A stretch of 64,000 nt of DNA from Onthophagus taurus (taxonomy: Eukaryota > Arthropoda > Insecta > Coleoptera > Scarabaeidae). The position numbers were made by a program, and so were the translations under genes. Under the pieces are notes generated by a model. It ran no database searches. It saw only the letters and a list, made by a program, of their open reading frames with translations, and was not told where the DNA came from. Below are positions 786 through 63,561 of this stretch, piece after piece (the stretch's first letter is position 1; each line of letters opens with the position of its first letter). Location: the NCBI RefSeq assembly GCF_036711975.1, contig NC_091968.1:124001-188000 (forward strand), given 5' to 3'.

Positions 786-1613
786 AAAAAAATACTAAAA
801 TTGTGTATTTGCCATTGTGGTGACCGATATGTTATTTACAATTATTTAAATTAATATACATTTAAACTAGTGTAAAGCTTTAGTACTTTTTAATTTTGTT
901 TAATTTGGTACATTAAAAAGATTAAAATGAAAAATGTTGGTTTTTTTCTGGGATTTCGAATGAAATACAAGTAACCTTTAAGGAAGATTATGACATCATC
1001 TCGTTTAAAAACGTGTTTTATTATCTTTATTATGCAACGAAACCGTTTGAGTTGTTGTGAACAACTTAATTTTGAATACATTAAGACTCGAGAAATTTTC
1101 GTTAGCATCACATTAAAGGAAATAATTGGGAGTAGCCAATCATGTAAACAAATAAGAACATTAAAAGTGTCTATAAACTAGTTAAAGTTTGGGGGACTAC
1201 TCACTTTAAATAAGTAGTTTGGGTGCTTAAAAAGGTGTGTTGATGGGGTTTAAGGAGCAATTAAAGTTTTTTAAAGATAAAATCACAATTTTAGGATGAA
1301 TTGAATCGTTAATAAGGGTAACAATATCGCTAAATGGGGTGACTTTTTATTTAATAATGTTAATTCTTAACATTAGACCTTCAAAATAAAAATAAAACAA
1401 TTAAGATTATAATATGTAGATACATTCTAACTATTGCTTCGTTTTAATTTATTCGCTCTTTTATGTATCAACTAGAGAGAGATCTAACATGTGATTTTTT
1501 ATTTAAAACTTGAAGGATACAAGGATGGAAGTTAATTATTACACAATTAAGTCGTAACCTGTTTTCTTCGCACATCTTCCATCATCAATCTAAATCTTTA
1601 AATACAGAGTAGG
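786..1613. other. Intergenic, no gene seen
   Basis: AT-rich DNA between the hypothetical gene and the cathepsin promoter. Short open frames lie on both strands here but lack coding character. I see no repeat or RNA gene. Confidence 0.5.
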
Positions 1614-1621
1614 TATAAAAA
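1614..1621 (+). promoter_or_regulatory. TATA box of the cathepsin gene
   Basis: TATAAAAA lies about 75 bases upstream of the first half of the split start codon. With the usual 25-30 base spacing, transcription would start near 1643-1650. That gives a 5' leader of about 45 bases. The spacing is a family rule; the start site itself is inferred. Confidence 0.55.
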
Positions 1622-1691
1622 GAAATCTCGGCAGGAAAAGATTGAGTGTGTGATTTGGTTTTGCGACTTTAACTTTAGAAAAAGTTTAATT

Positions 1692-2955
1692 ATGTAAGCA
1701 AAAAAAATTAGATTTGATTATTTAATAATTTCCCTTATTATTTCTAGGAATTTCTATTTTGTATTTTTATTATTTTTCTATTTAACTCCAACCCGATCCC
1801 AATTTGGTTTCAAACCACTTAATCCCATATCGACTTTGACGAATGCAGCTACCAATGCCGTTAAAAACCTCCCGTTATCGCCAGAAGATTTAATAACACT
1901 TAATTCTGAGTGGACGAAGCATCTAAATGTCGCATCTTATGCGAACCCTGCAGAACTCGCCAAACGCAAAGATATTTTTACTAAAAATTTCCAATTGGTT
2001 ACTCAACACGCAAAGGATTTCGTTAGTGGCAAAAGTTCGTTTGATTTAAAACTCACAGATCTCGCCGATTTAGTACTCGATGAATTTAACAAATTCTTCA
2101 ACGGATACGCAAGCCGACCGAAAAAATCAAACACACAAAAACCGGATAAAATTGAAACTGCAACAACCGATCAATTACCCGAAAACGTTGATTGGAGGCA
2201 AAAAGGGGCCGTTACTCCCGTTAAAAGTCAAGAAAAATGTGCTTCATGCTATGCGTTTAGTGCTGTAACTAAAACATGAATTGATTTGAAATAATCTTAA
2301 TTGTTACTATTTCTTGTTATTTAGGCTGGTGCACTTGAAGGCCATAATTTTATAAAATCTAACACCTTAAAAGAACTTAGCCCGCAGAACATAATGGATT
2401 GCGCAAAAGCTAATTACTCAATTTGGGGTTGTGGCGGAGGTTATGTGGATGATTCTTTCAGTTACGTTAAGGATAACGGAATAAATATCTTGGGGGAATA
2501 TCCGTTTGAAGCAAAAGATGGGCAATGTAGGTTTGATTCGAAAACTAGTGCCGCATCAGCAAAAGGTTTTAAAAATTTTTAATTGATTAAAGTCGCTAAC
2601 TAGCTACATAATTTTTATTATTATAGGATATGCGTTAATACCGCCAGGTGATGAGAAAGCTTTGATGGAAGCTGTGGCGAAAAAAGGTCCAGTAAGCGTA
2701 GCCATTAACGCCGGATTAAATACCATGCAATTGTACTCTCGCGGAGTTTATTATGACAAAGACTGTAAAAATGGCGAGGATGACGTGAATCATGCCGTTT
2801 TGGTTGTTGGCTACGGAGTGGAAAACGGCGAAAAGTATTGGTTGATTAAGAATTCGTACGGTACTAATTGGGGTGAAGATGGTTATTTGAAATTGGCTAA
2901 AGATAAAGGAAATCATTGCGGAGTTGCTACTTCTGCTTTTTATCCGATCGTTTAA
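1692..2955 (+). CDS. Cathepsin L-like cysteine protease (papain family C1A), 4 coding segments
   Basis: A secreted or lysosomal endopeptidase. Proposed joins are 1692-1693, 1748-2264, 2325-2565 and 2627-2955, giving 362 aa in one frame. The start codon appears split: AT ends the first exon at a GTAAGC donor and G opens the second after TTTCTAG. Reading begins [18 protein letters not shown], a convincing signal peptide. A propeptide with an inhibitor-like helix follows, then the mature start near [17 protein letters not shown]. The catalytic Cys lies in [12 protein letters not shown], the His in [11 protein letters not shown] and the Asn in [10 protein letters not shown]. All three are present, but two Trp that are normally conserved (CWAF, NSWG) are Tyr here. 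The donor at 2566 (GTTTTA) is weak but gives the expected [12 protein letters not shown] join. Length and order fit an active enzyme. Confidence 0.9.
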
Positions 2956-2985
2956 TGACTATAAATTTTGTTAATACTTTTGAGA

Positions 2986-2991
2986 AATAAA
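2986..2991 (+). terminator. Polyadenylation signal of the cathepsin gene
   Basis: AATAAA lies 30 bases after the cathepsin stop codon, which is the usual position for a short 3' UTR. Confidence 0.6.
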
Positions 2992-3352
2992 AATATATAG
3001 GCAACCAGAGTTACATATACAAATTAGTGTTTTGACAGTAAAAAGTGAGGTTAAGTAATTTAGGTTAATTCAAACGCTTCGTTGTCAAAATATATTTCTT
3101 ATTAAAAAAAAAACTTGTGAAGAACATTTCCTCATTGATTTCTAAATCATTTAAAAACGCAAAATCGATTTGATAAAGTAAAACTTAAAATCATTAATTA
3201 GTTTTTTTTTTATGGTGAATCATTTGAAGATCTTCTTAGTTAATTTCTATAAATATCAAACTTGATGATAAACTTTATTAAAGTAAGTTTTTAAAACATT
3301 ATTATTCCATACTAAATCTTTGTTATTCCAGCATACTTTATTGGAACGTTTT
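2992..3352. other. Intergenic, F-box gene upstream region
   Basis: AT-rich DNA with no gene visible. A TTATTCCAG at about 3323-3331, just before the F-box start codon, could be a splice acceptor, so the F-box gene may have a non-coding first exon here. Confidence 0.35.
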
Positions 3353-6300
3353 ATGGAGTCTCCCCGATACGAATACGAACAATTAAATGGTCGCGTTTTA
3401 TCGAATTCGATAATCCCCGACGATCTAATTTCGAAAATATTTGAATACCTCCCGCGGAAAGATATTTTAAAAGCACGTTTGGTTTGCAAAAATTGGGACA
3501 CACTCTCCGTCGAAACTATTCACCATTTATATCAAACCAGATTTCACAAATCCACCGAAAACTTATCGCTACGTTACTTAATTATTCGCTTATATGGAAA
3601 TGTGTTCAATCGAAACTTACTTCAAAATGTTAATGGCGAAACAAAATTTAAACATTGGAAAATATTATGGAACGATGGCGATAAATTTAAAATAGAAAAT
3701 CCACCGTCGGGGTCACCACCGCTTCCTGATGCACCTGAATTTAAAGGACACACATCGTGTTTTGCTACTTCGTATAGACCATGTGAAAAAATCCAGGTTG
3801 TTGATACATCTGGTGATGATGATGTGGGATTTGTAATGAAACATAGGGTCACTGTGCATGCTTCAGAGTGGGTTTGTGCTAGGTTTGATTGTGGGGCTGC
3901 TTATTGGGTTAAATTGAGTTTAAAAGGGAAAGATGGTACTGTACAAGAAGTTGTTGGGGAACATCGTGAAGAACAATGGTGTAATCCTGAATGGAAAAAG
4001 GTAAATATAAATGTTTTTAACCCCTTAACCTACAACTTCGGGCATAGCCCGTAGTACGATGATATGCGAATGGCTCGAAGGCTGCGCAAGCTTGTTAACG
4101 TTTTCGGCCCAAAATTCTCGTACCTAAATCGTAGATTAAGAGGTTAAATGGTTAAATAGTCTACTTGTGATGTAAAATGACTGTCAAGTTTGACAGTTAG
4201 AACATCAATAAATTGGTAGCAGAGAATAAGGTGAATTTGTCACTTATATCAAATTGAATGTCACGTTTGATATTAAAATCTTGAGATGCAAAATGATCAA
4301 ATTTGACAGTTAGAACGTCAATTAGTGGTAAAAATTGAGGTTGACATGTTATTTCAAATGTTAAATTGTAAGAAAATTGTAAATTTAATCTTTAACACGT
4401 TCATTGCCAAGCAGAAAATTGAAATTTCGTGTGGTGGTCAAATCCTTTTTTTTTTTTTCTTACAAGGGAAGTATCAGAACTGTCCCTCACCGATTTTGTT
4501 GAAATTTGGTACAGCGATAGTATGGCCAAAAATAAGGTTTACGTATTTTTTTATACGTGCTAATAAAGCCCCTGGGGCGAGTTATAAGAGTTGGAAATCA
4601 GGGCGAAATATATATATTCGCTTATAGGCTGAAAACGAAAATAGCTATCGACATGTGGTAAATATAAACTAATATTCATTTTCAAAGAGCTTTACATTGA
4701 TATATCACACATACAGTGCTAGCGTAAAGTAACCCCCCCCCTGTTTAACTTCTGAACAGATTGAGATATCAATATGAACAAAAAAACGTCAGTTTCTATA
4801 TTTTATCAGCACAAATATTTTCTTATGGAAAATTTTGGTATCACTTTTAGTTTTTCCGGAAAATGGAACAGCTTTGTTTTTTTAAATGGAACACCCAGTA
4901 TATTATGGTATCTTTCGAAAGAATAAAACAATACGAATTCAACGATACCTCACAATCAAATGTCGGTTTATTAGTTTTTTACATAAAAATTAAACAAAAT
5001 GCGGAATTTCGCCGGAAAAACCAACGTATCTTCGTTGACTACCTGTCGAGATACAATGGGCCAGATAAATGGTGGACGGTCAGTTAAAGGTCGGTCTAAG
5101 CTCGGATTAAGCCGGGTTAAAATCAGCAATTCTTTTAGAATGTTTTTATGAAACAATCAATACAAGAAAAGGATAAAAAGAAAGTTCTTTTTAAAACTTC
5201 TAAGAAAAAATTGTCATAACAACAATTTTAAAGTTTGTAGGTACTTTGAAATTTTGTATTTAAGGCAGCATGCAAATATTTTCCTTCATTTCTATCTTTG
5301 AATTCTACCCGACCAAGTATAACCAAAGAAAGGCGAGATCAAAATGGCTAGAAGGAGTTTAGAACACAATATCGAAGCAATTTTAATATTCGCTCGTGCT
5401 GACAGAAATCTACATGAAACAGGGCGACAATTTAAGGAACGATTTCCTGAACATCCAATTAGTCGAAAATATTTAAGAGAGCTTGTGAATAAGTTTTTGG
5501 AAACTGGAAGCGTCGAAGACCACAAAAGAACTGGTCGTCAGATATTAACAGAAGTATTTAATGTGCCCATGATGTCGTCTGCTGCTATCGCATCAACGTG
5601 TGATGTGTTAAATATTTCCGCGTCGTTGTTGGAAGACGTGGAAATACTTAAAGAAGAATAAATATCATCTATTTTAAATAAAAATGCTTCATGAATTAAC
5701 AGAAGATGACCCTGATATAGAAGAACAGAATTTTGTGAGCTAATGACAAATATGGTTGAACGAAATCGATTATACTTGAAACATATTTGTTTCAGTGATG
5801 AATGTACTTTCTTTTTGGGTGGAAAATTGCATCGGCGTGATGTTAATCTACATGAATATCGTGACGTTATCACTCAATTTCATTAGAAAGTAAATGTTTT
5901 TTTTTCAAGACTTTTGCAAATTGTACAACAGAATTCTGACGATTTTGAAATGGAACTAGTGTTTCATCAAGACGGAGCACCTCCACATTATGCGCCAATG
6001 CTACGAAATTATCTTGATAAAAATTTTAATGGACAACAAGATCACCAGATCTGACACCTTTAGATTTCTTTTTATGGGGTTATTTAAAATCCAAGGTATA
6101 TGAAATTCCGTTGGGTAGTATTGAGGATTTAAAACAAAAAATTATTGACGTCTGCCAAAATATTGATCACATGTTAAGCCGTGTGAGAGAGGAAACACTA
6201 CAAAGATGGTACCACTGCCTAGAAGTTCAAGGTAATCATATCGAACAATTTACTTAATATTTGATTCTTAATAAATAAAAAATTCTTTTATTATTCAATA

Positions 6301-18062: not shown

Positions 18063-18541
18063 TAATCATTGTTTTTGTCCTATTTATGTAGTACTTATCA
18101 ATAAAATTTTTGTGAATATAAACTATTAAAAATTAATTAAATTTTAGATTTTGTATTACACTAAGAAATTAAAAAAAGCTAATCAACTGATTTCAAAACA
18201 AATTTAATATAGTTTAAATAAAAATAGTAACATTTTTTCCTTAAAACTAACTTCACGCTATTAATTAATCAACAAATAAATCTGTCAACTGTCAAAAAAT
18301 ATTCTTTAGTATTCTAAAGAAACGTCAAAACAATATTATTCAACACTATTCAAAATAATAATTGACCTGCAAAAAGATAAAAAAGAAGTGTTTTTCCTAC
18401 CAAAATGAATCGCAATTCCGAATTAATCGCGATAACACAAAAATAATCTTAATTCATGTAAGTTTTTTACGAACTTTATTAACCCAACTTAAACATTAAT
18501 AAAATAAATGATCATTTGAATTTCAGAGGGTTAATGAAATT
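18063..18541 (+). promoter_or_regulatory. RabGAP1 upstream region with a 5' UTR intron
   Basis: A GTAAGT donor at 18458 and a TTTCAG acceptor at 18521-18526 define a small intron just before the RabGAP1 ATG, so the leader is probably spliced. Upstream, CTGTCAAAA-type sequence recurs near 18290 and 18325. Confidence 0.45.
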
Positions 18542-21500
18542 ATGGAAGATCGACTTAGCGTAAAATCTAACGAGTCAATAGCAACCAGCGACGAATTTGA
18601 CTTCGTATCAGATAAACCGGGAGCAAGTAAAACGCCAACCTTGAATATCATCGGCGGAGGATTCACAGAACTCGAAATTACAATGAGTGAGGTTTTACGG
18701 GAATCGGAGGGTTTTCAAAATGAAGTTATTGAGGGGATAGAACCGAGAAAAGTTGGCCAATCGAGATTTTATAGTCCAGTTGAACCTGGAACTGATCCGT
18801 TAAGTGCTCCCACAGAAATTTCACCGACAGAGAAAAAGGATGATATGAAACCAGATTATAGTGATGAAGAAGGTAAGTTAATTAATGATGATGTGATTGG
18901 AGAATAATAGCTAGCAGCATAGCTATTATGTGCTAGTACTTTGTGTGTCTGTTTAATGTATCTCTCTTTATCATTTACGATCCACAACAATCCCCGAACC
19001 CATAAATACAGTAATTGCGTTCATGAAATTTCAATTACAGTTAAGTTTCTTTAATAAAGTGTTGTATATGTATAAAAAGAGGGATCAAAAACAGTTTTGT
19101 TAATTATTCAATAACTATAAGCAATATACCCAACAAACTATACACATTTATTATCAGAAAAAAATAACGAATTATTTTAGACCATACCCAACTATGGTTT
19201 GTATTTAAAAAAATGAAGTTACTTGTAAAATCACGAAAATAAAACGTGAGAACCTACTCCACAGAAATCTTTACAAAAAGTTCCCCATACAATGTTTTAA
19301 TTATAACACTCCATCTTTGGTAATAAGTGAGGTATTCGCGTTTATCGTTTTCGTAGTATTTTCCACTTTTTGCTGAGAGGATGAAAACAAAAGACAATAG
19401 CTGTTTGGAGTTTTCAGCATTAGCAGTTTCTCAATAAACGAAATTATGACATATAAGCTACTTTGATTCTAGACTTTGCTACTTTTATCTCGTTTAGTTT
19501 CGCAGATAGCCTATGCGGACAACAAATTTCGGTCATCTGTACATAGGCACTTAAAAATTGTAGTCTGTATAGCCATCATTAATTCAGAATGAACTCGCAA
19601 ATCAACGAATCAACGTCTTTGTTCTAATATCTATATTATATTGGAATATTTTTGAATTAAAACAAGCCACTCAGATATTGAGGGGGATTTCCCGCCGATC
19701 ACGGTATCAGTATTGGAGTTAATTTGAGAGGATTATCAGCAATAGGATATACTTATTCTTTTTCTTGCATAGGAGACAATATTTTTTTAATTATCTACGC
19801 CTTTGACCATAGGATCAGCTCCAAATCAATATAGGTTTCTTAGTATAACGGAACAGTCCAGCGCTTCACTCAGCGAAGTCCAGGCTGAATCCATTTGGTT
19901 GCTTATTATGTCCACTCAGCAAGAAGATTACGTTCGAGTCTCTGCACTAACAACGAACAGAACGCCGCATTCAACATGTAGATCCAAGTTGCGTTGCCTA
20001 CCAAGAAGTCAAGACAATGTTGCAGCGTTGATCTGTTCACGATAAATGTCGGTGAACGCATACAAGAAAGTTTATAACGAGGGGTAAACCGCTGGGGAAG
20101 TAGGTGTACAAAATAGGGGAAATGCGGAGGAATTATGGGGAAGTTCGACGAATTACGGGGAAGTCTGGGGAATTATGGGGAGATGCGAGTAATTACGGGG
20201 AAGTACAAGGAATTACGGGGAATTATCGAGGAAGTTTGGGGAAGTACGGGGAATTATTGGGGAAGTACGGGAAATTATTTAGGGAAATTTGGGAATATAT
20301 TGAATCACGATCGAACACGATTAAACACGATATCTAACGATCGAAGTTACGATGTTCCATAAACAAGCTAGATCTAGTATTAGGTGCGCAGTTTCTGTTT
20401 CATAAAAAGGGGGGGAATTGTTACTAGTAGAAGCATCGTTTTCATTCAAAGGTAAGATTGAATGAGTATCATATTAAAATTTAAATTTATATTAACATAT
20501 CGTGAAGAGTCAATGGTACTAAATTCGCTCGTAAATTCTGTTTTGTATTAGGCGCCAGGATGACGGCAAATCGCTATCGCTGTTTTCAAGAGGCCAAAAA
20601 TGTTCTACAATTTCAATTAAATGAAAATGTTAAGGAAATTCTTATTATTAGCGGATTTGATAATGAGGTGCTGCTTGGTACGATTGACGAAAATGATCTA
20701 GAAAAAATAGAAGCATTTATTAGAAATGACTACCATGAATTACTAACTTTGGAAGAAAAAAATTTGTTTTACGGGATTTTTAAAAATAATCCGCAGCAAT
20801 TTAAATTGCTATCTGGCACGAAAAAACAAATAGTTTTAATTTCCAAATTTTATAAATCCAAATACGAGAGAAAAATATCGACTCAGTCTACGCAAACCGA
20901 CATAACTGAAAACATTTCTGAGCAGACATTACCACCCCCCTCAGCACAACCATTAAGTGAGACTGCAGCTACAGATCAGGAAACAGAAAAGTGCGTTATA
21001 TTAAAAGCTCTAAAGTGCTGGCTTAAAACAAAAGTTAGTCAGGAACAATGGTTAATATTTGAATCAAAATGTAATGGTATAAGCCTAAAAATTCAAAAAG
21101 GATTAGATAAACATTTTTCTTGCACTGTGACTTGCTTTTGTGGTCAAAGTTGCAAAATCCAAAAGGTGTCCAAAAAAGACACTTGTCAACCAAGATGGAT
21201 ATATGCTAATATTCATAAACATTTTTTAAGTAAACATATTACTGCGCATGCGAACGATCAAATTAATGCGCCGGCAACTATTGTTGAAAGTAAACGCAGG
21301 GAAACATCAATTACTGATTATTTTACGTTGAACCCAAATCCGTGTTCTTCACGTGCAAGTTCTTCAGTTGAAAATAATTCACAAAAGATTATTATACTAG
21401 AAAATATTTTCGTAACACCTGTTGACCGTACTGACACATCTCATCATGAATGTCTGAAGAGTATTGAAAATATTTACTTTAATGAAACCGCCTCGGAAAC

Positions 21501-24500
21501 CGATAAGAAAATGTTTCCTCAGAAGAAATCTCGACTGACACCCTTACACGAGTTCCTACACGAAAAATTGTTACTCGTAATAATTCTCCCCAGACTAGCT
21601 CTTCAAAATGGAAATTAGAAAAATACGGAAGAAGTGAAATATCTAAACGCAAAAGAGACAATATTGACAATAATCAACTATTTATAACAGACTTTTTTTC
21701 TTTACTAAACGAACTTTACTTGGTAACGGCATATTTCAAATTAGCAGACATGATGATGTAGAAATAAAGAAATTATACAAAGCTTTCAAACAAAATTATA
21801 AAAAGCTTTAATACTGTTTTGTCAGTATTATTATTTTCTGTTTTTATATAGAAAAACTCAATGTTTTTATTTGCCAAAGAATATATGTTAATTTTTATTG
21901 ACTTTTATTTGGGTGTTTTACTTAAATACACACGTGGATATGCCGTCCGAAGGGAGACGAGGTACGAGTATGTAAGAGGAATTACGGGGAAGTACACGGA
22001 AGTACGGGGAAGTATCGGGAAGTATAAGGAATTATGAGGAAATACACGGAAGTACAGGGAAATACTAGGAATATAAGTAGGAAGTATAAGGAATTATTTG
22101 TCAAAGGGGAAGTAGGTGTACAAAATTTGAACTCGGTTTATAACCTCTTCCATTCTTCGTTCTGAATTATATTGAAGTTTTTCCATCAAAAACTTAAACA
22201 ACGAAAAAGATTTCCCTATGGGAAATTATCCTATTTCAATAAAAAATAAATTATTACAAATGATAGAATCGTAATCAGTGGGCGCTTTCGTTATGATTAC
22301 AATAACAGGATGAAAACGAAAGTAGTGGTAATAATCGTTACATTTACATAGATGCTAAAGTTCTGATTTGCGTCACAAAACTACCATTACTGAAATATGG
22401 TAGTTAATTCGAAAAAGTACTAATTTATTTCATTTAATAAACATAACATTGCATTTTTAGTTAAAACTACTATGTTACGCGGCTTGAAACCTTGAATTTT
22501 TTAAATTGTTTACATGCTTTCCGACTCATAAAGATAGTTTAGTTGTGTTGTAAACTCGTTATTTTGTTGGGTTGGATTTAAAGTAAAAAAAGAAAATGGT
22601 TATATGTAGGTTTAATTAATTCTTTAGTATTAAAACTTTTATAATAAATTTTTTTTTCGTTTTAGTGTCCGATGTTGATCAAGATTGCACAATATTTAGC
22701 GGTGTCACATATTTAGGAGCCGCAGCAATAAACGCTCCCAAATCGGAAACAGAAATCCAAAGAAATATGGTTGTTTTAAACGAACAAACCACCGATCAAG
22801 GTATTAAAGTCTCCGTTTCCGTTCCCTCCTCATCTCAAGGATTCGTTGTGTGAGTTATTAATAATTATTATTTTTTTAAATTCCTAATAATCTTAAATTT
22901 TTTTTAGATTATATGATGCGATAACAAATTCTGTTATTTCCCGTTTTGAAATCCAAAGAATCTTATTTTACGCTCGCGGAATCGCCGAGAGTAAAGAGGC
23001 GAGTTGTTTTGCTTTTACGTGGTCGCACGGCGATACCCAGGAATCTGCTATATTCCAATGTCACGTGTTTCGGTGTGATATCGCCGAGGCGGTCAGTCGA
23101 GTTTCCGCTTGTTTCGCCAAAGCATTTCAAAGAGTCCCTCGTTCAATGAGTAGTTCAGTTGCTTCCGCTGCTGATATGTCCGCATCAATAACAACTATTT
23201 CCGAGGCGAGAACCCTGGTTTATGTGTTTGAAGTAAATTTAGAAATTAAAGAAGATGAAGGAAAAGTAAAAATAAATTAAAGGAAATTATTAACTTTTTA
23301 AATTATTTATTTTAATATTATTTAAGGGAGCTTTTTCAACGGTAGCGAAAGATAGAAGTGGTTTTAAGTTAAGAAGTAACCTAGAAAAACAATTATGTTT
23401 AACAATAAAACACGTTTCCGATAATGGACCTCAATTGTATATCGAAAGGTGTTTTGGGGTTTTAGTGGCCGCCGGGAGACACGTTCGACACTCCGATATG
23501 CAATTATTGGAAATGGTTTGTTTAAGAAATTAAAAAAATACAATTTTACTTTTATTTTGTTCATCATAAATTCATTTAAAAGTGTTAATTTAACCTCAAA
23601 TTAGGTACAAATGGGAAATTCGAATCAAAGCGGCAACGATCGGCAGTGCACGATGATCTCGGCTTTATGGGATCCAACCGAAGAGGCTTTCGAGCCCTTA
23701 AATACCGAGACGAAATCGAATCAGACAAAAGAACTGAAACAATACATGACGGTGGCTGTCGATTTGGTGATAAGGGGGATTCAAGAACCGGTTCGTTTTC
23801 AAATCGAAACGCCGATTAGAGTTTATACGCAATCGGAACGGTTTTGGTATTTTCAAAAAAAATCTCTGGTTCAACAGTTTTTTTTAAATTTAAAAGAGGT
23901 ATGTAAACAATTTTTGTATACAGGGTGATTTATAACATACGGAGCAGATTAAAAGAGCAAGTACTAGGGGCCAAACTGAAGATATTTTCTTAATAATGTT
24001 TTGACTACAACGTAATAATCACAAAGATATAGAGCATTAAAGTTGAATTAATTGCCCAGCATTTCTTACGATATACGGTATTACACTACGTTTAATTTCA
24101 AACTGCGAATATTTCGGGGTTACTTAAGCAATGCCAGATTAGCACCAATAATAAAATCTTTGTAATATGGCAGTTACGGCTATTTAAAAATTTGTTAAAT
24201 CACTCAAAAACTTGTGTTTGTTTTTTGAGAACCGCTGATATAGTAGAAACCACGAGAGCTGGCAGTGACAGATCGCTTAAAAATGGTATGAATCAAGATA
24301 TGGACGTACGACTTAGATTATTTCACCACATACATTTAAATGTAGGTTATGTTAGTAATGGAGGTTATATGTCAAACATTGTCAAAGATATTATTTAATG
24401 ATTTTCCTTTGAAAGAAAACATTTTCGGCTTGTGAAAACACTAACAGATTCATGACAACGCTCACAAGACGTTTCGATTTGAGGTTATAATTATAGAGTG

Positions 24501-27500
24501 ACATCCCTTAGAAGAACAGACGTACTTTTTCGACGTGGCCATTTGAATTGTACAGCAGACATATTAAATTAATGCTATCTCTTTCCAACACACATTACTC
24601 TCTAGCGGTTTGTGAACTACGTATGGCATTTGTAAGAGCGGAAAATGATGATTTACTGCCAGCTCTCGTGGCGTCTACTATACCATGTTTTTATTGCTGT
24701 CAATCCAGTTGACTTGGTTACCTAGCAACGGACATGTCATTTAATTTTAATAATCAATGTCATTTAACGTCAAAATTAGAATTTTTACTAATCAAAAAAT
24801 ACAATGGTAATGTACAGTAACGAAGAATACGTAGATATGCTTATTATTTATGGAGCTGCTGGAGAAAACGCTGCACACGCAAGACGTCTGTATTTAGAAC
24901 GATATCCAAATCGACAGATCCCTTCTGAAAACACTTTTCTTCGGTTAATCCAGTGGGGAAGAGAGACAGGAAATTTGCAACCTAAGAAAGGTCTTGGTGG
25001 CGGTAGATTAAACAGATATGGAGTGAATGTGCAAGAAGAAATTCTAGAAATTGTGGAAGCGGATCGAAGCACGAGTACTCGTCAAATTTCTCACCAACTC
25101 GAGGTATCCCAGAATTTTGTTTGGCGTACGTTGAAAAGTAACGGTTTACACCCCTATCATTTTCAAAAAGTGCAAGGACTGACTCCCGCTGACTATCCTT
25201 TGCGGTTGCAATTTTGCGAGTGGCTAGTAAATCGTACCAACAGAGAAGCAGATTTTGCGGACATATACTGGTAACGAATGAATGCTGTTTTACCAGAAAT
25301 GGTGTTCTAAATGTTCACAATTCCCATGTGTGGTCGGACGAAAATCCACACGTTATTCGTCAAGGCTCTTTTCAACAACGATTCAGAGTGAATCTATGGG
25401 CGGGAATTGTGAACAATACGTTAATAGGACCTTTCGAATTACCAGGAACTCTTAATGGAACTTCTTATTTACAGTTTTTACAAGAAAATCTGCCAGTACT
25501 CCTGGAAGATATTCCGCTACTTATGCGACGTGAGATGTGGTTTATGCACGACGGTTGTCCTGCACATTTTAGTCGTAATGTACGAGATTTCCGCGATAAT
25601 GCTTTTCGGCAAAAATGGATTGGTCGAGGTAGACCTATTCCATGGCCACCACGTAGTCCCGATCTTAACCCATTGGACTTTTTTTTATGGGGATTCATGA
25701 AGGATAGAGTATATGCCACCGAGGTTAATACAATCGACGAACTACAACATCGCATCACTGCCGCTACAGAGGACATACGTCCACGATTTCCACGATTATC
25801 GTTAAATTGGATTCGTCGTGCGCAGTTGTGCGTCGAAATACAAGGACAGCACTTTGAACATATGTTATAAAGAGATTATTATTATGTTATTTTCTTGTTT
25901 TAGAGATTTTGTAATTTTGCATTTAAAACATTATTATTATCCGTTTCATAAATTAACATCTATTATTTCTTTTCATAAATTACGTATTAAAACTAAACAA
26001 TTAAATTGTCTACTTTGACAGCTCCTTCAAAAATGAGGATGGCGTTGACAAGTATTTTAATTGTTCTTTAGTGAATATCAGCGGTTCTCAAAAGTTGACG
26101 CTAACTTATTTAAAAAATTAACATGCGATATCTATGTAACTATTAAGATTTTAACAAAACATTATTAAGAAAATCTCTTCAGTTTGACCTCAAGTACCTA
26201 CCCATTTAGTCTCCTCCGTATGTTATAAATCACCCTGTATACAGGTGTATCTGAATGACTGCAACAAACTTCAAGGGGTGATACTTTAGTGAATTTTAAG
26301 GGTACTTCGATATATGAACTATGGGCGACTTCGGCTCCCTTCAGGAGCTATACCCCTCCAAAAATGGCGGAAAATTTTGGTTTATTTTTTTTTTCTCAAA
26401 AACCATAAACGCTAGGAAAATGAAATTTGGGGAATATGTTTAACTCATAATAGGGCACGTTTTGGCCCTATTTGTACTTTCAACCTACCCTTCTAAACTA
26501 CTAAACGTAACCACCCCCATTCAATTTATGCCTAGATTTTTTGTATGAAGATGATAAATACATTGGAAAAATTTCAGTTAGATAGATAAAACTATTCTAA
26601 AACTTTTTTGTCTCTCTGATGTTCTTCGAAAAATTAATAATTTCTGAGAAAAAAAATAATTAAGCAAACACTAACTGTTAAGCTGTGGGTGGTTAATCGA
26701 AAGTTGGAATGAATTTTTAATGAAAAAATCTTAGTAGGCTTTGCAATCTTTGTCAGAAATATTTTTGACGTTTAAATGTCAATGGTTTTCGTACTATTAT
26801 TATTGTTTTATTTGAAATTTTGAAACGTCGAGTGAACGAGCGTAAATGCGATAGAACTTTATTTAAAATTAATTTGAAAAACAATAATAATAGTAAGAAA
26901 AACACTAACATTTAAACGTCAAAAATATTTCTGACAAAGGTTACAGAGGCTACTAAGATTTTTTCATTATAAATTCATTCCAACCTTTGATCGACAACCC
27001 CGATGTTTAAAGTGCAGTATTTGCTTTATTATTTTTTTTCTCAAAAATTAGTCGTTTTTGGAAAAATTTTAGAGACAAAAAAGTTTTAGGATACTTTCAG
27101 CTACCTAGGTAAATTTTTTTTAATGTATTTATCATCTGCATAAAAAAAATACTAGCAAAAATGTAAAGGGGGTGGTTACGTTTAGTAATTTAGAAGGGTA
27201 GGTTGAAAGTACAAATAGGATCAAAACGTGCGCTATTATTCCCAGTTAAACATATTCCCCAAATTTCATTTTCCTAGCGTTTATGGTTTTTGAGAAAAAG
27301 AAATTAAACCAAAATTTTCCGCCATTTTTGGAGGGGTGTAGCTCCTTAGGGGAGCCCAAGTCGCCCATGGTTTATATATCAAAGTACCCTTAAAATTGCC
27401 TAAAGAATCACCCCCTGAAGTTTGGGCATGTCATTCAGATACACCCTGTATATAAATATCAAAGATTAATTGTTTTAACAAACAATTAATTAATCCTGAT

Positions 27501-30500
27501 AAGAAATCGTTTATTTAAGCATTGTTCTGTAATTTTTAATACTTTTTGGTCGATTAAAAACAGGGAAAGGACAACTTATTAAAAAATAACAATCTTAATT
27601 AATTTATTTATTTGAATTTAACGTCTTTCTTTTTCAACTAGTTCCCCTCTCATTTTTTCCATATGCTAAAACCGATTATGTAGCGATAAGAAACCATTTA
27701 AATTGCTTTGTTATTCAATACGTTCAGTTCGCTACTGTTGTTATTTATTTAACGGTTCAACGTTCAACTCGTGCTTTAAATCGGATAATACATATTATAT
27801 TCAGTAGATAAACGATGTTTGAAAAACAATGTTTTAAAAACGAAATGTTAAATGCAAAGTTAAGTATGTGTTGTTTTTGTTTTTCTTTTACTTTTAGGTT
27901 ATGAACGCGGATCAAACTGATGTTTATTACGAGGTGTTAAGCATGGAAACGTCCGGCGAATTGGATAGAAATCGATTAAATTTAACGCTGAATCTATCTA
28001 GCTTGATACAATCGCCCAGTATCACTTCTATTGATACCATTACACCCAAAGATGAACATTTATCAGGTAAAAATCAAGACTGTTGTTTCCATTTTTTAGT
28101 TAAAAATGAATTATTAGGCTAGCCATTGTATCTAAGTTAAAAATGAAGAATAAAAAAATCTAAAACTATCTAGGGCATTGTTACAGAGATTTTAAATGCT
28201 CTCATTGGCTAAGAGCTGGATCTATCCATTCTCTGCATTGAAAGAGTAATTCAAAAGTTTTGAAACTTGACGAACTCATCAAGATGGTATTTATATATGT
28301 ATATATTTTTTGTAGATGGTGACGAACCATTGTTAAGCGGTACAGGTCAAGTTTCAAAAGACTGCGCAGAAGATGTTTTAGAAAATTGGGCGGACGTCCT
28401 TCAAAAATGGAAAACGACCGATCAACGCCCGAAGCAACTCTCCGCGCTCGTAAAACTAGGTATTCCGGAGGCTCTAAGAGGTGAAGTTTGGCAACGATTA
28501 GCAGGCAGCGACGACCAACTCCTCGAAACATATCGTATCCTAATGACGAAAGAATCTAGTTGCGAAAATGTCATCGAACGCGATATCGCCCGAACATTTC
28601 CCGCTCACGATTTCTTTAAAGAAGCTGGAGGACAGGAATCTCTCTATAAAGTCAGTAAAGCGTATGCTGTTTATGATGCTGAAGTGGGTTATTGCCAGGG
28701 ATTAAGTTTTTTAGCCGCCACCTTATTATTACATGTAGTTATTTGATTATATCCCTTATTTATAAACTAAATATTAATGAATATTTAATTCTAGATGCCT
28801 GAAGAGCAAGCATTTTCCGTTTTGGTAAAACTAATGTATGATTATAGTTTAAGGGATTTATATAAAGACGGATTTGATAATTTATATTTGCGTCTCTATC
28901 AATTAAATAAATTGATGGAGGAACAACTGGGGCCGTTATGGCAACATTTTACTGCTCATCACGTTGAAACCCATATGTTTGCTTCCCAATGGTTTTTAAC
29001 ACTTTTTACTGCTCGATTTCCTTTATATTTCGTTTTCCATATCATCGACGTTTTTCTTCTTCAAGGAATCGATACTTTATTTCAAGTTGCTTTAGCTTTA
29101 TTATCGGTACTAATTTATTAGGTACATTTAATAATTGTTTAATATGTTATTTTGTAGATGTGTATGAAAGATCTTCTCCAGTTAGATTTCGAAGGTATCC
29201 TAAAATATTTCCGAGTAAGTTTACCAAAAAAATGTCGTTCCGAAGAGATCGCCAAACAGATAATGAAAAAAGCGTGCGGAATCAAAGTGAAAAAACTGAA
29301 AAAATACGAAACGGATTTTATCGCATTAAAGGGTAAGTGGCAGTCGGGGTCGCCGAGCTCCGGTAGTAGTAGCTGTAGTTGTCCTCTAGACAGCTGGGAC
29401 ATTATCAATTTGGATACAGAGGCTGCGGACAAAGAGGAATCAGAGGCGTCCGAGGTGGCCAAGTTGCACGCCGCTTTGCAACGGAGCGATGAGGAGAAAC
29501 GCTTGATGTTGGACGAAATCGCTCAATTGAAGGAGATTCTTAAACGGGAGGTGACCCAAGCGGAGAATGAAAAAATCACCAATCAAAGTGTTCTAAACGA
29601 ATGCAAAGGCGTTAAACAACGATTAGCCAATCAATTGGCACTTACGACGAGTAAACTTGAATTAATCACAGTTAGTATTATTAATTTTTTTTAAATTTCA
29701 TTAAACTAAAAAACATTGATAATAAAGCAGCCATGGTGAACTTGGGTTGTCTTTGTTAAGTAACATGAAGGTGTTTAGAATCAATTAGAATTATTTTAAC
29801 ATTCACCAAGAGGATTTTTTCTATTCCTTTGAATCCCTTTCAAAAAACATCAAAACGATTTTTTTAATTCTACCAACCCCGTTAAGTATTCTAGAGATGA
29901 ACTAAAATTAAAACTAGAACTAACACTAGAAACTTTCGAGTTTTGTCGTGCGTCTTTTAAGAAAAGGTTTTGAGAAAAAGGTTCGGATGTCTAAAGGTGG
30001 GATTCTTATGATGCGTCTGACGCAAGCGGCGATCGCAGTGTGTCTGACGCAGTGTACTGCTTTAATATTATTTTATGTACTAATTTCCTATGTAGCGTCA
30101 TCGGCTATACCCCTCGAAGAGCAGTATAGACGCAGCCGTTAGTCAATTCTAAAAAAAAAACCTGTGCAGATTGAAAACTGCTGTGGTGATATCAAAACGA
30201 AAAATTTTATTTAAATTTGATTTAAAACGAAAAATGTCCATGGAAACGTTTACAGGTTTGCGAAGATGAAAAGTTGGTGGAAGTGGTTGCAAAGTTTCCG
30301 TGTATTTATGATCTTTTAAATCCGGCTCATAAAGACCAAATAATAATAGATAATGCCTGGAAGGAAATATCGCAATTTGTAGGGAGATCAGGTAGGAAAA
30401 ACATCGTTACAATTCATTATCATTTGTTATATTAGCTTTATTAGAAAATATAGGTGTCTCACTGAAGAGGGACATAAGGTTTTTTGGAAAAACTATAGAT

Positions 30501-33500
30501 GCAATAAAATTCATATTTGGCACGTTGATGTAGGGTGAAGAAATACAGGGTGATTCATTAGCTCTGTGACAAACTTTGACAGATGAAAGGTGATGCGATT
30601 CTAAGGAAAAAATGTTATATGAATATGGGTCCGATTCATTTTGGTTAAAGAGTTACAAGCCTTTGAAAATTTTACACAGTTTAATAGGCAAATGAAAATG
30701 TAACATAAAAAATTATAGATATTTGGATCATTCCGTATGCTATTAGCTGCATCTTGAATTCTGTCCAGTAGTTGCTGACGGGTAGTAATTTCTACATGGT
30801 ACACAAGCTGCTTCATGTGTCCCCAGAAATAATAATCCAGCGGATTTAGATCTGGGGATCGTGGTGGCCAGACTACTGGACCTCCATTGCCAATCCATTT
30901 GTTGTGGAAAATGTTCATGTAACCAAGCGATGACTTCTCTTCCTCGATGTGGTGGTGCACCATCGTGCTGATACCACATATTTTGAACGATGTTAAATGG
31001 TACGTCGTCGATAAAATCGAAAAGGTTATGTCCCAAGAAATTTCTGTACATATTTGCATTTAAGCGTTCATTTATCACCCATACAGGTAGCAAAGAATTG
31101 TTAAAAATGCCACCCCAAACGTTTACACTAAACCGTTGCTGAAATCTTCCAGCTACTTCCTGCTTGTGGATTTTGCAAGGACCACACATGTTCGTTATGA
31201 TAATTATTTATGCCGTCCCTAGTGAAACACGCTTCATCAGACCACAGAACTTGGGAAATGCAGTTATTATTTTGAGCATGTTGCTGAATAATCCAGTGGC
31301 AAAATGCTAAGCGTTGCTCAGTATTTCCAGGATGTAATGCTTGAACATTTTGGCGATGAAACGGATGTAACATTTCTCGATTCAATACACGCCATACAAA
31401 ACTTTGGGATATTTGTAACATACTCGCTATACGCCGAGTACTAATTGAAGGGTCGTCAAGTACTAAATCAATAACACGTTCTTCATTTTGTACATTCACA
31501 TCATGGGGACGAACGGAATGTAGTGGAGCGGGGTTACCTGTTTCTCTCAGTCTGCGAAATGATGCACTAAACACTGTATGGGCAGGTTGATGTCTATTTG
31601 GAAACCTACGAAGGTATTCTCTTGCTGCTTGCCGAGCGTTTCCGTTACAAAGCCCGTATACAAAAACAATATCTGCATACTCTTCAGTCGAAAATACATG
31701 CATTTTCGTTTTCGATCAAAACTCTGACAATTATAAACTTTGAAACACACAGAATAGAGTAAATTGAAATGTTTGACATAAAGAACTCAGTTTTGTTATC
31801 ACAGCCAACTCTGTATTTGTGTTTCATAATTATTGTTGCAAATCTTTACTTCGTCGATGTGAAGCGTGCATTCAAGCTGAAGGCGGACATTTCGAACAAT
31901 TTTTGTAATTTTTAAACTTATTTTTTATGTTACATTTTCATTTGCCTATTAAACTGTGTAAAATTTTCAAAGGCTTGTAATTCTTTAACCAATCAATGGT
32001 AGTGTCATAGAATACAATCTACTACTTACGGTTATACTGAAAATTGTTCACTATTTATAAGATAATTTAAAAATTTTATTTCACATTTGACTACATAATT
32101 GATTTACAAACTTAATTCCAAACAACATTCATTCGAAAAATGTTTTGCTTCGTCTACAATGTTTGAGAAAAAAATTAAATTAAATTATGTTGCCAATTTT
32201 TAAATAACATTTTAAAACTTCTTTAAAAATAGTCACTTCCGGTTTAATCGGAAGAGATAGAAACATGATACTATACCACTAAAAGATAGACCATTTCAAC
32301 CTTTATCATCGTGCCAAATATTAAATTCATTGCATTTATGGTTTCTCCAAAAAAACCCTATGTCCCACTTCTGTGGGACACACTGCATAATATACACTAC
32401 TGTGTTCTGGTAACATGATTATTTTGCCAAGATACTGTCCCTGCACGACTGTTGAAATATTTCATGAAGGAATTTCTTACATGAAATCCATCCGTATGTG
32501 CAAACCTCCCACCTCTAGTAAGTGGTATAAAACGCAAACAGTTTAACGCACTGCGATCGCCGCTTCCGTCAGACGCACCATAGGAATCCCCCCTTAAAAC
32601 GTCAAACACCTGTTCTTAAAAAACGCACGGCAAAACCCGAAAGTTTCTAATGTTAGTTCTAGTTTTAGTTCAATTAACACCGGCCGTGAAAACCTTCGTA
32701 CTTATATTCTAGAGATGTTTAGAATCAATCAAAATGATTCTTTTTTGACACATACCAAGAGGCTATTATGAATTATACAGGGTTCCCCATAATAGGCTAC
32801 CCATTTTGAAATTTGAATTAAAATTTTTTTAGTTAACAAAACAAACTTTTTATTATACTAAATTACAGCAAACTTTTTGGGATTTATGATAACTTATAAA
32901 TATTTGGCTAATTTAATTCTAACTTTTAAAAATCACGTCTTCTAATTGACCTCCACCAACTTCAACACATTTTTCAATATTAGATAAAAAGTGGTTCATT
33001 ACACGGCGTAGCAAACCTTCGTCTATTCCTTCAACTTCTTCACGAATTTTGACTTTGAGTTCCTCGATTGTACCTGGACGACTCGCAAACACTTTAGCTT
33101 TTAAATATCCCCACAGGAAAAAATCGGGTGCCGTTAAGTCGGGGGACCTCGAAGGCCAAAGCAAATCTCCGAATCGAGAAATGAGTCGACCATTAAACAT
33201 TTCTCGCAGAACCCTCATTGAGTTTCTGGCGGTATGAGCTGTTGCCCCATCTTGTTGGAATAGTAAGGGATTGTTTAGTAATCCTCGTCTATTTAATTCT
33301 GGAATGAGGAATGTCTCTAGCATGTTTACGTAGCGCTCGGATGTTACTGTTACAGCGCGGTTATTTTCATTCGCAAAAAAATATGGACCAATAATACCAA
33401 AAGATCCTACTCCACACCACACAATAACTTTTGGATTATGGAGGTTCTGTGTAAAGATTTCACGAGGATTTTCATTTGACCAGTATCTAAAATTCTGTTT

Positions 33501-49373: not shown

Positions 49374-50998
49374 TGTTAGAATAATTTAGTTGATAATTAT
49401 TTTGATCAACGTTTATTTTATTATAAGTATTTAGATCACTTTACCCGTTGATAATTTATATGTTGTAAGCATAGTGATATAAAAAAGTTGTTGTGATTCT
49501 GCTTTAAAATTGGCAAAAATTAAATTCCCGCAAAAGCCATAAAGTCGTTTAATTATTTAAGAAAGTCCATCAGGTTATGGGCCCAGATCGCGGGTTATAA
49601 AGATTGAAATATTTATATAGTATAATATATAATAAGGAGATATAACAGAAAGATTTCAAGATGGAAAGCGGAAAGCATATGGGTCAAATAAAGCTATTAT
49701 CTAACAACAATTATCAGACATGGAAATTTCGAGTTGAGATGTTGTTAATTCGGGAAAATCTTTGGCAAGTCCAACTCCAAAAGAAGATATGTGGGACCTT
49801 ACAGATAAAAAGGCTCGAGCAACAATTGGATTATTAGTGGATGATACCCAACTGAAGCTTATAAAAGGGAAAACAACGGCGAAAGAAATGTGGTTGTCAT
49901 TAAAAAACTTCCATGAAAAGTCTACATTAGGAGTGACAACCAGACTACTCAAAAAGTTATGTAAAAGGGAACTCTCAGAAGGTGGTGACATAGAGATTCA
50001 CATAAGGGAAATGGAGGAACTATTGGAGCAATTAACAACTGCTGGACATATTTTTCCTGAAGAAATGATTGTTATATTTTATTTACAAAGTTTGCCAGCT
50101 AGTTATGATCATCTTATAATTGCATTAGAAAACAGAACGGACACGTTGACAGCGGAATTTGTGAAACAAAGACTTCTGGAGGAGTATGAAAAACGAAAAA
50201 ATCGGGACGTCGACGAAGCTTCAAAGGCCATTAAGCGAAAAATTTGACGAAAAACAATACAGAAGTGCAATGGGAGCTTTACTGTATATTGCAAATAATA
50301 CTCAACCAGATATTTCTGCTTCAGTATCTATTTTAGCACAGAAAGTGACGAATCCAATGAAAAGGGATTGGATAGAAGTGCAACGAGTATTTAGATATTT
50401 GAAAAATACCATTGATTTAAAATTACAAATAAAATCAAGCCCAGATCAATCAACGGATCACCTAATTGCATATGTGGATGCAGATTGGGGATCGAATTTA
50501 ATTGATAGGAAATCAAATAGTGGATATTGTGTATTCTTAAATGGCAATTTAATGACTTGGAGCAGCACAAAGAAAATTAAAGAAAAAAAACAAAAATGCG
50601 TAAGCTTATCGTCTACTGAGGCGGAATATGTTGCGCTAACTGAATTAACTACAGAGCTTGAATGGTACACGAGATTATTATCAGAAATAGGCGTTAATGT
50701 AACACCGATAATCTTCGAGGATAATCAAAGTTGCATAAAACTTACCAAAAATGACCAGTTAAAGAAAAGAACTAAGCACATAGATACGAAATACCATTAT
50801 ATAAGGGATTTAGTAAATAAAAATAAAATAAATATAAAATATTTACCTAGTGAAGATATGATAGCTGATATACTGACTAAACCGTTAGATAAAATAAAAC
50901 TTAGGAAGTTTAGGAAAGGTTTAGGATTAATTTAATTAGAATATTCATTATAAACGTTGAGGGAGGGTGTTAGAATAATTTAGTTAATAATTATTTTT
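49374..50998 (+). mobile_element. Ty1/Copia LTR retrotransposon fossil
   Basis: A broken, non-autonomous copy of the Copia superfamily. It starts with TGTTAGAATAATTTAG and the same sequence recurs at about 50968 after a purine-rich tract, so both ends carry LTR sequence. Between them are a gag-like segment (around 49660-50200) and an RNase H-like segment (around 50240-50935). It is far shorter than a complete Copia element, with several breaks, and cannot move by itself. It inserted into the MITE copy at 49152, so it is younger than that MITE. The few differences between the LTR stretches suggest moderate age. Confidence 0.85.
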
Positions 50999-62534: not shown

Positions 62535-63561
62535 CAGGGTGTCCCGCAACGATTGTACAATACTGCATCAGCGTATTCTCTGATCGAAAACAGACAAGAA
62601 AAGTCTAATAAACATAGGTCCGAAAATGGACCAATTTCGAGATATTCAAAGTTTTAGTTTCATAAGCTGACCTATTGTAAACATCATTAATTCTAACGAT
62701 TTAGATGCAGTAATTATATGATTATGATGGTTAAGATAAAGTTTAATAAATAATAAGATAATATTAAGTTAATTAATACAGTTCATTAATAATTTAACAA
62801 AACAAGTAACAAAGATTGTCGAAGAAAATCGTTCAACCAGCATAAAAACAACGAATATTTAACAAATTGGAAAAGAGTCATGTCATAATAAATGTTCAAT
62901 ATGCGCACCATTTACTTCTAAACACAAACGGATACGTTTTCTAAATGAACTTCTAATGCGTTCAAAGATACCAGGAATTTGTTTTACTGTGTCAAATGCG
63001 TTACTAATTTTATTCTTCAAATCCTGCACATTTTGAACGTCTTCAGAATAAACAATTTGTTTTAAATGTCCCCAAAACCAAAAATCTAACGGATTTAAAT
63101 CTGGTGAACGAGGTGGCCCTCTTCGGCCAATCCACTTATTGCCAAATCTGTTATTTATGTATGCTCGAGTAGCGCGTGCATAATGTGCTGGTGCTCCATC
63201 GTGCATAAAGTAGCAATCTTCTAGAATTTGTTGAGGTAATTCATCAAATGCCTCTGTAAGGTCATTTTGTAAAAAATGTATGTAGGCATCGGCTGTCAAT
63301 CTCTTTGGATGAAAAAATGGACCTAATAACTGATCACCTATAACTCCAGCCCATACATTAACACTGAATCGCCACTGATGATGAGTTTCTAGTATTGCAT
63401 GGGGATTTTCATCGCTCCAAACGTGCGCATTATAAATATTAAAAATTCCGTTGCTTCATCCGTAAATACAATGTTTATAGGAAAGTCGACGTTTACTACC
63501 TCTTCCTGTATGGCCCACCTACAAAAAATCTCTCTTTTTCGCCATCATTTTCTGTTAGAGC
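62535..63561 (-). mobile_element. Mariner (DD41D-derived) remnant cut by a LINE
   Basis: The left end CAGGGTGTCCCGCAACGATT follows TA. The transposase C-terminal two thirds lie on the minus strand. The other end is not found; a LINE tail starts at 63562. This is a fourth mariner family in the window. Confidence 0.8.
62883..63480 (-). pseudogene. Mariner transposase fragment
   Basis: Open from 63299 to 62883 (TADAYIHFLQNDLTEAFDEL, second Asp in YFMHDGAPAHYA, third Asp in RSPDLNPLDFWFWG). The catalytic spacing is 37 because four residues (the usual W-P pair region after KWIGRRG) are missing. Upstream to about 63480 the frame is shifted. Probably inactive. Confidence 0.78.

What the first reader, a model, noticed from the sequence alone, without database searches (positions are those of the whole stretch)
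20094..22126. Unfamiliar 2-kb element with minisatellite ends and a 21-bp terminal direct repeat
Both ends carry the same G-rich minisatellite unit in the same orientation, capped by an exact 21-bp direct repeat. Between them is an intronless coding region with a helical N-terminal module, a Cys/His cluster and PCNA-binding-type motifs, but no known transposase, reverse transcriptase or recombinase signature. This combination does not fit any DNA transposon, LINE, Helitron or Crypton layout I know. It could be a new element class, a non-autonomous member of one, or a gene captured between minisatellites.
Basis: partly seen in the sequence, partly recalled or inferred. Interest (0 to 1): 0.72.

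Follow-up and report, generated by a model that had tools for sequence, protein, structure and literature searches.

The report
Crippled copy of P-like transposon
The 2-kb element is a shortened, immobilised copy of a cut-and-paste transposon that has spread around this genome and appears distantly related to the fruit-fly P element; its repeats are the ends of the transposon, not a sign of a new class of mobile DNA.

Summary
The repeats are real and the element is mobile, but it is not a new class. The window copy (20078-22135) is one of 20 copies found in this genome. The window copy has lost 14 bp of its 3' inverted repeat but keeps GTTTATAA on both sides. Three insertion sites have empty counterparts in other copies of the host repeat.

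The window copy also lacks about 1.5 kb that longer copies carry, encoding part of a DDE-type transposase (D, D, DxxH). A relative with 33-50% identical protein has the same kind of ends and supplies the E-containing part. Pfam and PDB sequence searches find nothing credible, but a profile of this genome's own P/THAP9-like transposases matches family 1 (hhalign 94%, E 1e-7; 100 shuffles far lower). It does not match the relative alone.

Verdict: a non-autonomous, internally deleted derivative of a divergent, probably P-like cut-and-paste transposon. Unusual are the directly oriented 10-bp arrays at both ends, a TGTACA box 11 bp inside each inverted repeat, and no recognisable THAP domain. Whether Repbase already lists it could not be checked.

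The parts
20070..20077 (+). left target-site duplication GTTTATAA
   Evidence: 8/8 match to 22136-22143
20078..20093 (+). 5' terminal inverted repeat CGAGGGGTAAACCGCT, intact
   Evidence: same 16 bases at the 5' end of all 16 family-1 elements examined, inverted at the 3' ends of 13 of them exactly
20094..20114 (+). first copy of the 21-bp direct repeat; palindrome TGTACA at 20105-20110, 11 bp inside the TIR
20127..20295 (+). 5' subterminal minisatellite, 10-bp period, GGAAGTACGG-type unit
20560..21618 (+). ORF of 352 aa: N-terminal part of the transposase, then out of frame relative to long copies
   Evidence: pN/pS 0.91 among copies over the first 200 codons, no sign of selection
21121..21237 (+). 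Cys/His cluster, zinc-finger-like
   Evidence: sequence; partly covered by the alignment with the relative family (32-34% identity); no Pfam match
21301..21324 (+). PIP-box-like ETSITDYF
   Evidence: binding to PCNA not tested
21675..21698 (+). PIP-box-like QLFITDFF, not in the frame of the ORF here; in long open frames of L009, L013 and L014
21712..21715 (+). internal deletion junction; about 1.56 kb of L014 (its element coordinates about 1519-3077, including a 73-bp duplication of its own) missing
   Evidence: L002-L007 align with the window copy straight through it
21715..21811 (+). remnant of the transposase C-terminal coding end
21976..22093 (+). 3' subterminal minisatellite, same orientation as the 5' one
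22106..22126 (+). second copy of the 21-bp direct repeat; TGTACA at 22117-22122
22127..22135 (+). remnant of the 3' end (TTGAACTCG); 14 bp of the 3' TIR deleted
   Evidence: compared with L011
22136..22143 (+). right target-site duplication GTTTATAA

Best explanation
This is a non-autonomous, internally deleted copy of a cut-and-paste DNA transposon whose transposase is a remote relative of the P/THAP9 transposases. SHOWN: repeated copies with the same ends at unrelated sites, 16-bp TIRs, 8-bp TSDs, precise empty sites, internal-deletion forms each present at two or more sites, and a partial transposase core (D, D, DxxH) in longer copies. INFERRED: a full-length protein supplied in trans binds the TGTACA box one helical turn inside each TIR and the 10-bp-period arrays, pairs the ends, cuts, and joins them to target DNA with an 8-bp stagger. 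Deletion copies arose by faulty repair after excision and were then moved in trans. The window copy later lost 14 bp of its 3' TIR and, with no catalytic domain, is probably fixed in place, apparently in an intron of a RabGAP-type gene.
For: Copies: 41 matches that I group into 20 copies on six contigs. TSDs: 8/8 identical at 19 of 20 distinct sites of two families, 7/8 at the other (L013) (L045 after moving its end by one base). TIR pattern CGAGGGGTAWWYCG: 54 places, 0 for the pattern read backwards. Empty sites: the L003 site has 3 uninterrupted and 5 filled places in one duplicated array; the L018 site 9 and the L017 site 1 uninterrupted places; 6 of these, read letter by letter, hold a single target copy. 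Shared deletion junctions: window, L002 and the L003-L007 array; L017-L019 and L020-L021 (two versions 21 bp apart; L019 by alignment only). Transposase parts in long copies. Relative family with the same kind of ends. P similarity: hhalign score 65.6, probability 94%, E 1.2e-7, 301 columns, against at most 21.5 in 100 column shuffles and 15.1 reversed; hAT 15.9, MULE 19.5. A profile of 6 P-like proteins of this genome matches 4 of 4 family-1 proteins (near-identical copies) at E 1e-5 to 0.013 for a nominal 500,000 sequences.
Against: No intact transposase was found: the five family-1 copies with core sequence (L009-L011, L013, L014) lack the region of the presumed E, and the family-2 copies read lack the first D, so the triad is pieced together from two families. 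The P profile does not match family 2 (best E about 300; hhalign 2%); adding family 2 lowers the family-1 match to 67%; searches with the family-1 or family-2 profile against P proteins are not significant (best E 66). The hAT and MULE controls have little power: P itself against hAT and MULE gave only 0.8% and 0.6%. Pfam and PDB searches are empty of credible matches. Both AlphaFold models are useless (mean pLDDT 30 and 31). No THAP domain found. Empty sites are paralogous repeats in the same genome.
Confidence: 0.85

Rival explanations
1. The same element, but its transposase belongs to a different DxxH superfamily (Kolobok, Dada, or an unnamed one); the P match only reflects the common RNase H ancestry of that group.
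For: [quoted passage not shown] Kolobok and Dada transposases were not at hand for comparison. Family 2 does not match the P profile.
Against: hAT and MULE profiles from the same genome, of the same DxxH group, give no match while P matches over 301 columns, including the stretch before the first D; those two profiles were shallower (4 and 2 sequences against 6) and also fail to match P itself, so they are weak controls. Kolobok makes TTAA duplications; the Dada families described make 6-7 bp ones, without TIRs in the U6 and U1 families (passages); here the TSDs are 8 bp and of varied sequence.
Confidence: 0.12
2. The window ORF is a KP-like repressor: a truncated N-terminal DNA-binding protein kept because it blocks the full transposase.
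For: Over the first 200 codons, 8 of 16 copies examined have a start codon, no in-frame stop and no gap inside the aligned stretch; three of those eight (L009, L016, L020) align over only 291, 435 and 588 of 600 bases. Deletion forms have multiplied. The P-element KP precedent is recalled; the papers on it were seen only in a search listing.
Against: Variation among 16 copies gives pN/pS 0.91 (48 N, 13 S; p = 0.75 against neutral), so no purifying selection is visible. Young copies would also look open by inertia.
Confidence: 0.1
3. A host gene captured between minisatellites, or a chance flanking by minisatellites.
For: Single long ORF and same-orientation arrays.
Against: 20 copies with shared ends, TIRs, TSDs and empty sites; in longer copies transposase-like coding sequence follows the same N-terminal part.
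Confidence: 0.01

Closest known systems
P element / THAP9-like transposons (P superfamily)
   Same: 8-bp TSDs, short TIRs with subterminal sites, internally deleted non-autonomous copies (passages of PMC7776569), and remote similarity of the family-1 transposase over 301 columns including both D motifs and DxxH
   Different: TIR CGAGGGG...; subterminal sites are directly oriented 10-bp arrays plus a TGTACA box instead of 11-bp inverted repeats; no THAP domain found; another Cys/His cluster; PIP-like motifs; no match to the curated Pfam models
Galileo (P superfamily, Drosophila)
   Same: P superfamily element of which some copies carry direct tandem repeats within the terminal repeats (passages of PMC4168063)
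   Different: Galileo's ends are very long inverted repeats and most TSDs are 7 bp; here the TIRs are 16 bp, the arrays are direct and the TSDs at the 20 sites examined are 8 bp
KolobokP
   Same: DDE transposon with repeats in direct orientation at its ends (passages of PMC9587614)
   Different: KolobokP has long terminal direct repeats, each with its own TIRs, and TSDs of mainly 3-5 bp; here the direct repeats lie inside one pair of TIRs
Ac/Ds and other hAT elements
   Same: 8-bp TSD and many short subterminal transposase-binding sites (recalled)
   Different: the hAT profile from this genome gives no match (weak control)

Membership tests
P superfamily | 8-bp target-site duplication | tested here: met
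   19 of 20 distinct sites of two families 8/8, one 7/8
P superfamily | short TIRs flanking the element | tested here: met
   both 16-bp TIRs in 15 of 16 family-1 elements examined, identical in 13, one or two mismatches in L016 and L013; the window copy has lost its 3' TIR
P superfamily | subterminal inverted repeats used by the transposase | tested here: inconclusive
   arrays are direct, but the palindrome TGTACA starts 12 bases inside the TIR at both ends in 14 of 15 family-1 elements that keep both TIRs; binding not tested
P superfamily | transposase homologous to the P/THAP9 RNase H core | tested here: inconclusive
   for family 1: hhalign 94%, E 1.2e-7, 100 shuffles far below; hmmsearch with a P profile E 1e-5 to 0.013. 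Against: curated Pfam models give nothing, reverse searches not significant and family 2 alone not matched
P superfamily | catalytic D-D-E triad in one protein | tested here: inconclusive
   first D, second D and DxxH in family 1; second D, DxxH and GSQACE in family 2; no copy read holds all
[quoted passage not shown]
   no Pfam match in the N-terminal parts (window ORF; L011); a different Cys/His cluster is present
P superfamily | GTP-binding insertion domain | not testable with these tools
hAT | transposase homology | tested here: not met
   hhalign 0.2% against 4 hAT-like proteins of this genome; weak control, since P against hAT gave 0.8%
MuDR/MULE | transposase homology | tested here: not met
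   hhalign 0.5% against 2 MULE proteins of this genome; weak control, since P against MULE gave 0.6%
Kolobok | TTAA target duplication | tested here: not met
   20 sites with 8-bp duplications of varied sequence
Dada | 6-7 bp TSD in small RNA genes | tested here: not met
   8-bp TSDs; whether targets are RNA genes was not examined
Helitron / Crypton / LINE | no pair of TIRs with a fixed-length TSD | tested here: not met
   TIRs with 8-bp TSDs

The most novel reading that the evidence does not exclude
A separate superfamily-rank lineage beside P: DDE transposases without THAP whose ends combine TIRs (CGAGGGGTA), a TGTACA/GTAC box about 11-13 bp inside and directly oriented 10-bp arrays, with PIP-like motifs that could tie transposition to replication through PCNA. 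Three lineages in this one genome share the box near the TIR (the third seen at one end only).
Probability: 0.25. Interest if true: 0.55.

Novelty: new variant of a known kind. Interest (0 to 1): 0.36.

Why it matters
It turns an apparently unclassifiable element into a testable one: its ends, target duplication, empty sites and much of the missing transposase are identified. If the lineage is unlisted, it extends the P-like group to transposases without a recognisable THAP domain and with direct arrays at the ends, which bears on how such transposases tell and pair their two ends. It also shows one way minisatellites can be spread: as the ends of a transposon.

Tried and rejected
Rejected: gene capture, a new class without TIRs, Helitron, Crypton and LINE (see full report). 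Protein structure: two AlphaFold jobs gave mean pLDDT 30 and 31, so no fold search was run. Relatives in viral contigs (close relatives only) and in genome contigs, which holds prokaryotes (one peptide pattern only): none confirmed; the alignment query to viral contigs had no stretch conserved enough to run. Pfam and PDB by sequence: nothing credible for the transposase. Selection on the truncated ORF: none seen. Target-site preference: A/T-rich, with T at positions 2-4 of the TSD in 12-13 of 20 sites, no clear palindrome. Two further TIR matches (C2:5691795 as L070, C1:13623178 as L071) gave no tblastn match to the family proteins.
Full report
OBSERVATION. The exact 21-bp direct repeat lies at 20094-20114 and 22106-22126 and exceeds chance: the longest exact repeat in 200 shuffles of the 3.3-kb region was 16 bp. 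The G-rich arrays at both ends have the same orientation and a 10-bp period. The ORF is 20560-21618, 352 aa.

ENDS. A search of the window's own genome (290.8 Mb, 33 contigs) with window 20050-22180 gave 41 matches, which I group by position into 20 copies on C3, C5, C7, C8, C11 and C15; the tool calls its counts lower bounds. L011 begins CGAGGGGTAAACCGCT and ends AGCGGTTTACCCCTCG, flanked by GTTTATTG on both sides. In one search I examined 21 elements, 16 of family 1 and 5 of family 2, at 20 distinct sites. As printed, 18 have identical 8-bp flanks, L006 and L013 match at 7 of 8, and L045 at 2 of 8 because its end was set one base too far; with that mended from the same printout L045 is 8 of 8, making 19 of 21. 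L006 shares its site with L003, which is exact, so 19 of 20 sites are exact. L004, L005 and L007, of the same duplicated array, carry CACTGCAG on both sides (L007 CACTGCCG on one). Both 16-bp TIRs are present in 15 of the 16 family-1 elements, identical in 13. The twentieth copy, L008/L015, has no 3' end; L040 and L044 were left out because one end is interrupted or missing. In the window copy the 3' TIR has lost 14 bp, but GTTTATAA stands on both sides.

MOBILITY. The L003 insertion has three uninterrupted counterparts (C7 at 27.32, 27.38 and 27.42 Mb) and five filled ones in the same array; the other 32 of the 40 scored matches (256 candidates) are LINE-like copies, by my reading, that run 6-22 bp past the junction and then diverge. 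The L018 site has nine places and the L017 site one where the host repeat runs on through the junction. Six empty sites, read letter by letter, hold a single 8-bp target copy and no insertion. These are paralogous repeats of one genome, not orthologous sites in relatives; the window insertion itself was not tested for an empty site. Deletion forms have moved: L002 and L003-L007 align with the window copy straight through its internal junction, at three distinct sites. L017-L019 share another internal deletion, and L020 and L021 a version of it 21 bp shorter (L019 by alignment only), at five distinct sites.

WHAT IS MISSING. Against L014, the window copy lacks about 1.56 kb. The long copies L009, L011, L013 and L014 (and L010, interrupted) carry there, with small variations, the motifs WIAEDATRITG, GYSSDGDTRLL and DEVHIGTKLRNRLL. 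A second family, 33-50% identical in protein, has the second D, QDTTHI and GSQACESLF but lacks the region of the first D in the copies read. No copy read holds the whole triad. Family 2 has the same anatomy: CGAGGGGTA TIRs, 8-bp TSDs, direct arrays of about 10-bp units and a GTAC box at the 5' end of all five and the 3' end of four of the five. A third lineage (L069, C1:20321597) shares the end motif at one end and weak protein matches.

PLACEMENT. Pfam searches up to E 1-10 and PDB sequence searches give no credible match. The genome gives 150 scored P/THAP9-like matches out of 341 candidates. An alignment of six of these compared with family 1 by hhalign gave probability 94%, E 1.2e-7, over 301 columns, pairing both D motifs, the GF after the first D, and DxxH. 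Controls: 100 column shuffles reached at most 21.5 against 65.6; reversed 15.1; hAT (4 sequences) 15.9; MULE (2 sequences) 19.5; a LINE protein 15.8. The hAT and MULE profiles were shallower, and P against hAT (0.8%) and MULE (0.6%) failed too, so they say only that family 1 is nearer to P than these profiles can show for P and hAT. A P profile finds all four family-1 sequences, which are near-identical copies, at E 1e-5 to 0.013 with a nominal database of 500,000. Against this: family 2 is not matched by the P profile, the reverse searches with either family's profile are not significant, and hhalign falls to 67% when family 2 is added and 2% for family 2 alone. Both structure models failed, so no fold evidence exists. 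Repbase practice, as given in passages of PMC4455052, treats transposases that converge in PSI-BLAST at E below 0.005 as one superfamily. By that yardstick the family leans to P, but this was not the same test. Because THAP was looked for and not found, I call it P-like rather than a P element.

END ARCHITECTURE. The direct repeat contains the palindrome TGTACA. It starts 12 bases inside the TIR at the 5' end of all 16 family-1 elements examined and at the 3' end of 14 of the 15 that keep their 3' TIR (L017 has TGTGCA). So the repeat that looks direct places a self-symmetric box at the same distance from both ends. In family 2 the GTAC core is at +14 and +12. The 10-bp array period is about one helical turn. 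That the transposase binds these sites is inference; P elements have internal transposase-binding sites (passages of PMC7776569) and Galileo's long TIRs hold many THAP-binding sites (title and abstract of PMC3688188 in a listing).

PROTEIN. The ORF is the N-terminal part of the transposase. Its Cys/His cluster is not THAP by Pfam. Two PIP-box-like motifs exist; one is out of frame in the window copy. A search for papers on transposases with PIP boxes and PCNA listed 3, none on such an element. Over the first 200 codons of 16 copies, 48 nonsynonymous and 13 synonymous variants give pN/pS 0.91, p 0.75 against neutrality: no sign that the truncated protein is kept by selection.

SETTING. The copy lies between a putative N-terminal coding exon at 18512-18904 (no Pfam match) and exons with PTB (22897-23277) and RabGAP-TBC (28264-29118) domains, so probably in an intron of a RabGAP1-type gene; the gene model is my reading.

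NOVELTY. From memory only, similar uncharacterised proteins exist in other animals. I call it a new variant of a known kind.

Odds: the confidence in the best explanation went from 0.86 to 0.85, because the hAT and MULE controls are weaker than first written. The P-homology row of the membership test was set to inconclusive, and several counts were corrected.

Noticed in passing
L010:2624-5477: A Transib-like element is nested in a family-1 copy: ends CACAGTG...CACTGTG, target CGCTG (second copy CGCTT), RAG1-like protein piece (Pfam RAG1 E 9e-4, below the curated cut-off; not found when a stretch was read through in one frame).
   Followed up: partly
L009:2247-4967: An open frame of 906 aa, LINE-like by eye, is inserted in a long family-1 copy.
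   Followed up: no
G000:C7:27.32-27.83 Mb: Duplicated array with five filled and three empty versions of the same insertion site, usable to order the duplications.
   Followed up: partly
L069:198-2700: Third lineage with CGAGGGGTAATTCGCT end, TGTACA box and C-terminal protein similarity (37-41%); an ORF at 3033-3641 that I read as Harbinger-like lies next to it.
   Followed up: partly
window 24792-25867, 30604-31715, 62886-63455: Tc1/mariner-type transposase remnants; only 24792-25268 was checked with Pfam (HTH_Tnp_Tc3_2), the others are by eye.
   Followed up: partly
window 49738-50932: Copia-type LTR retrotransposon remnant (49738-50241: Retrotran_gag_2, E 1.5e-36; the rest by eye).
   Followed up: no
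G000 genome-wide: 150 scored matches to the P/THAP9-like RNase H family and 142 to DUF4371 (hAT-type, recalled), against 16 to MULE; the first two are lower bounds.
   Followed up: no
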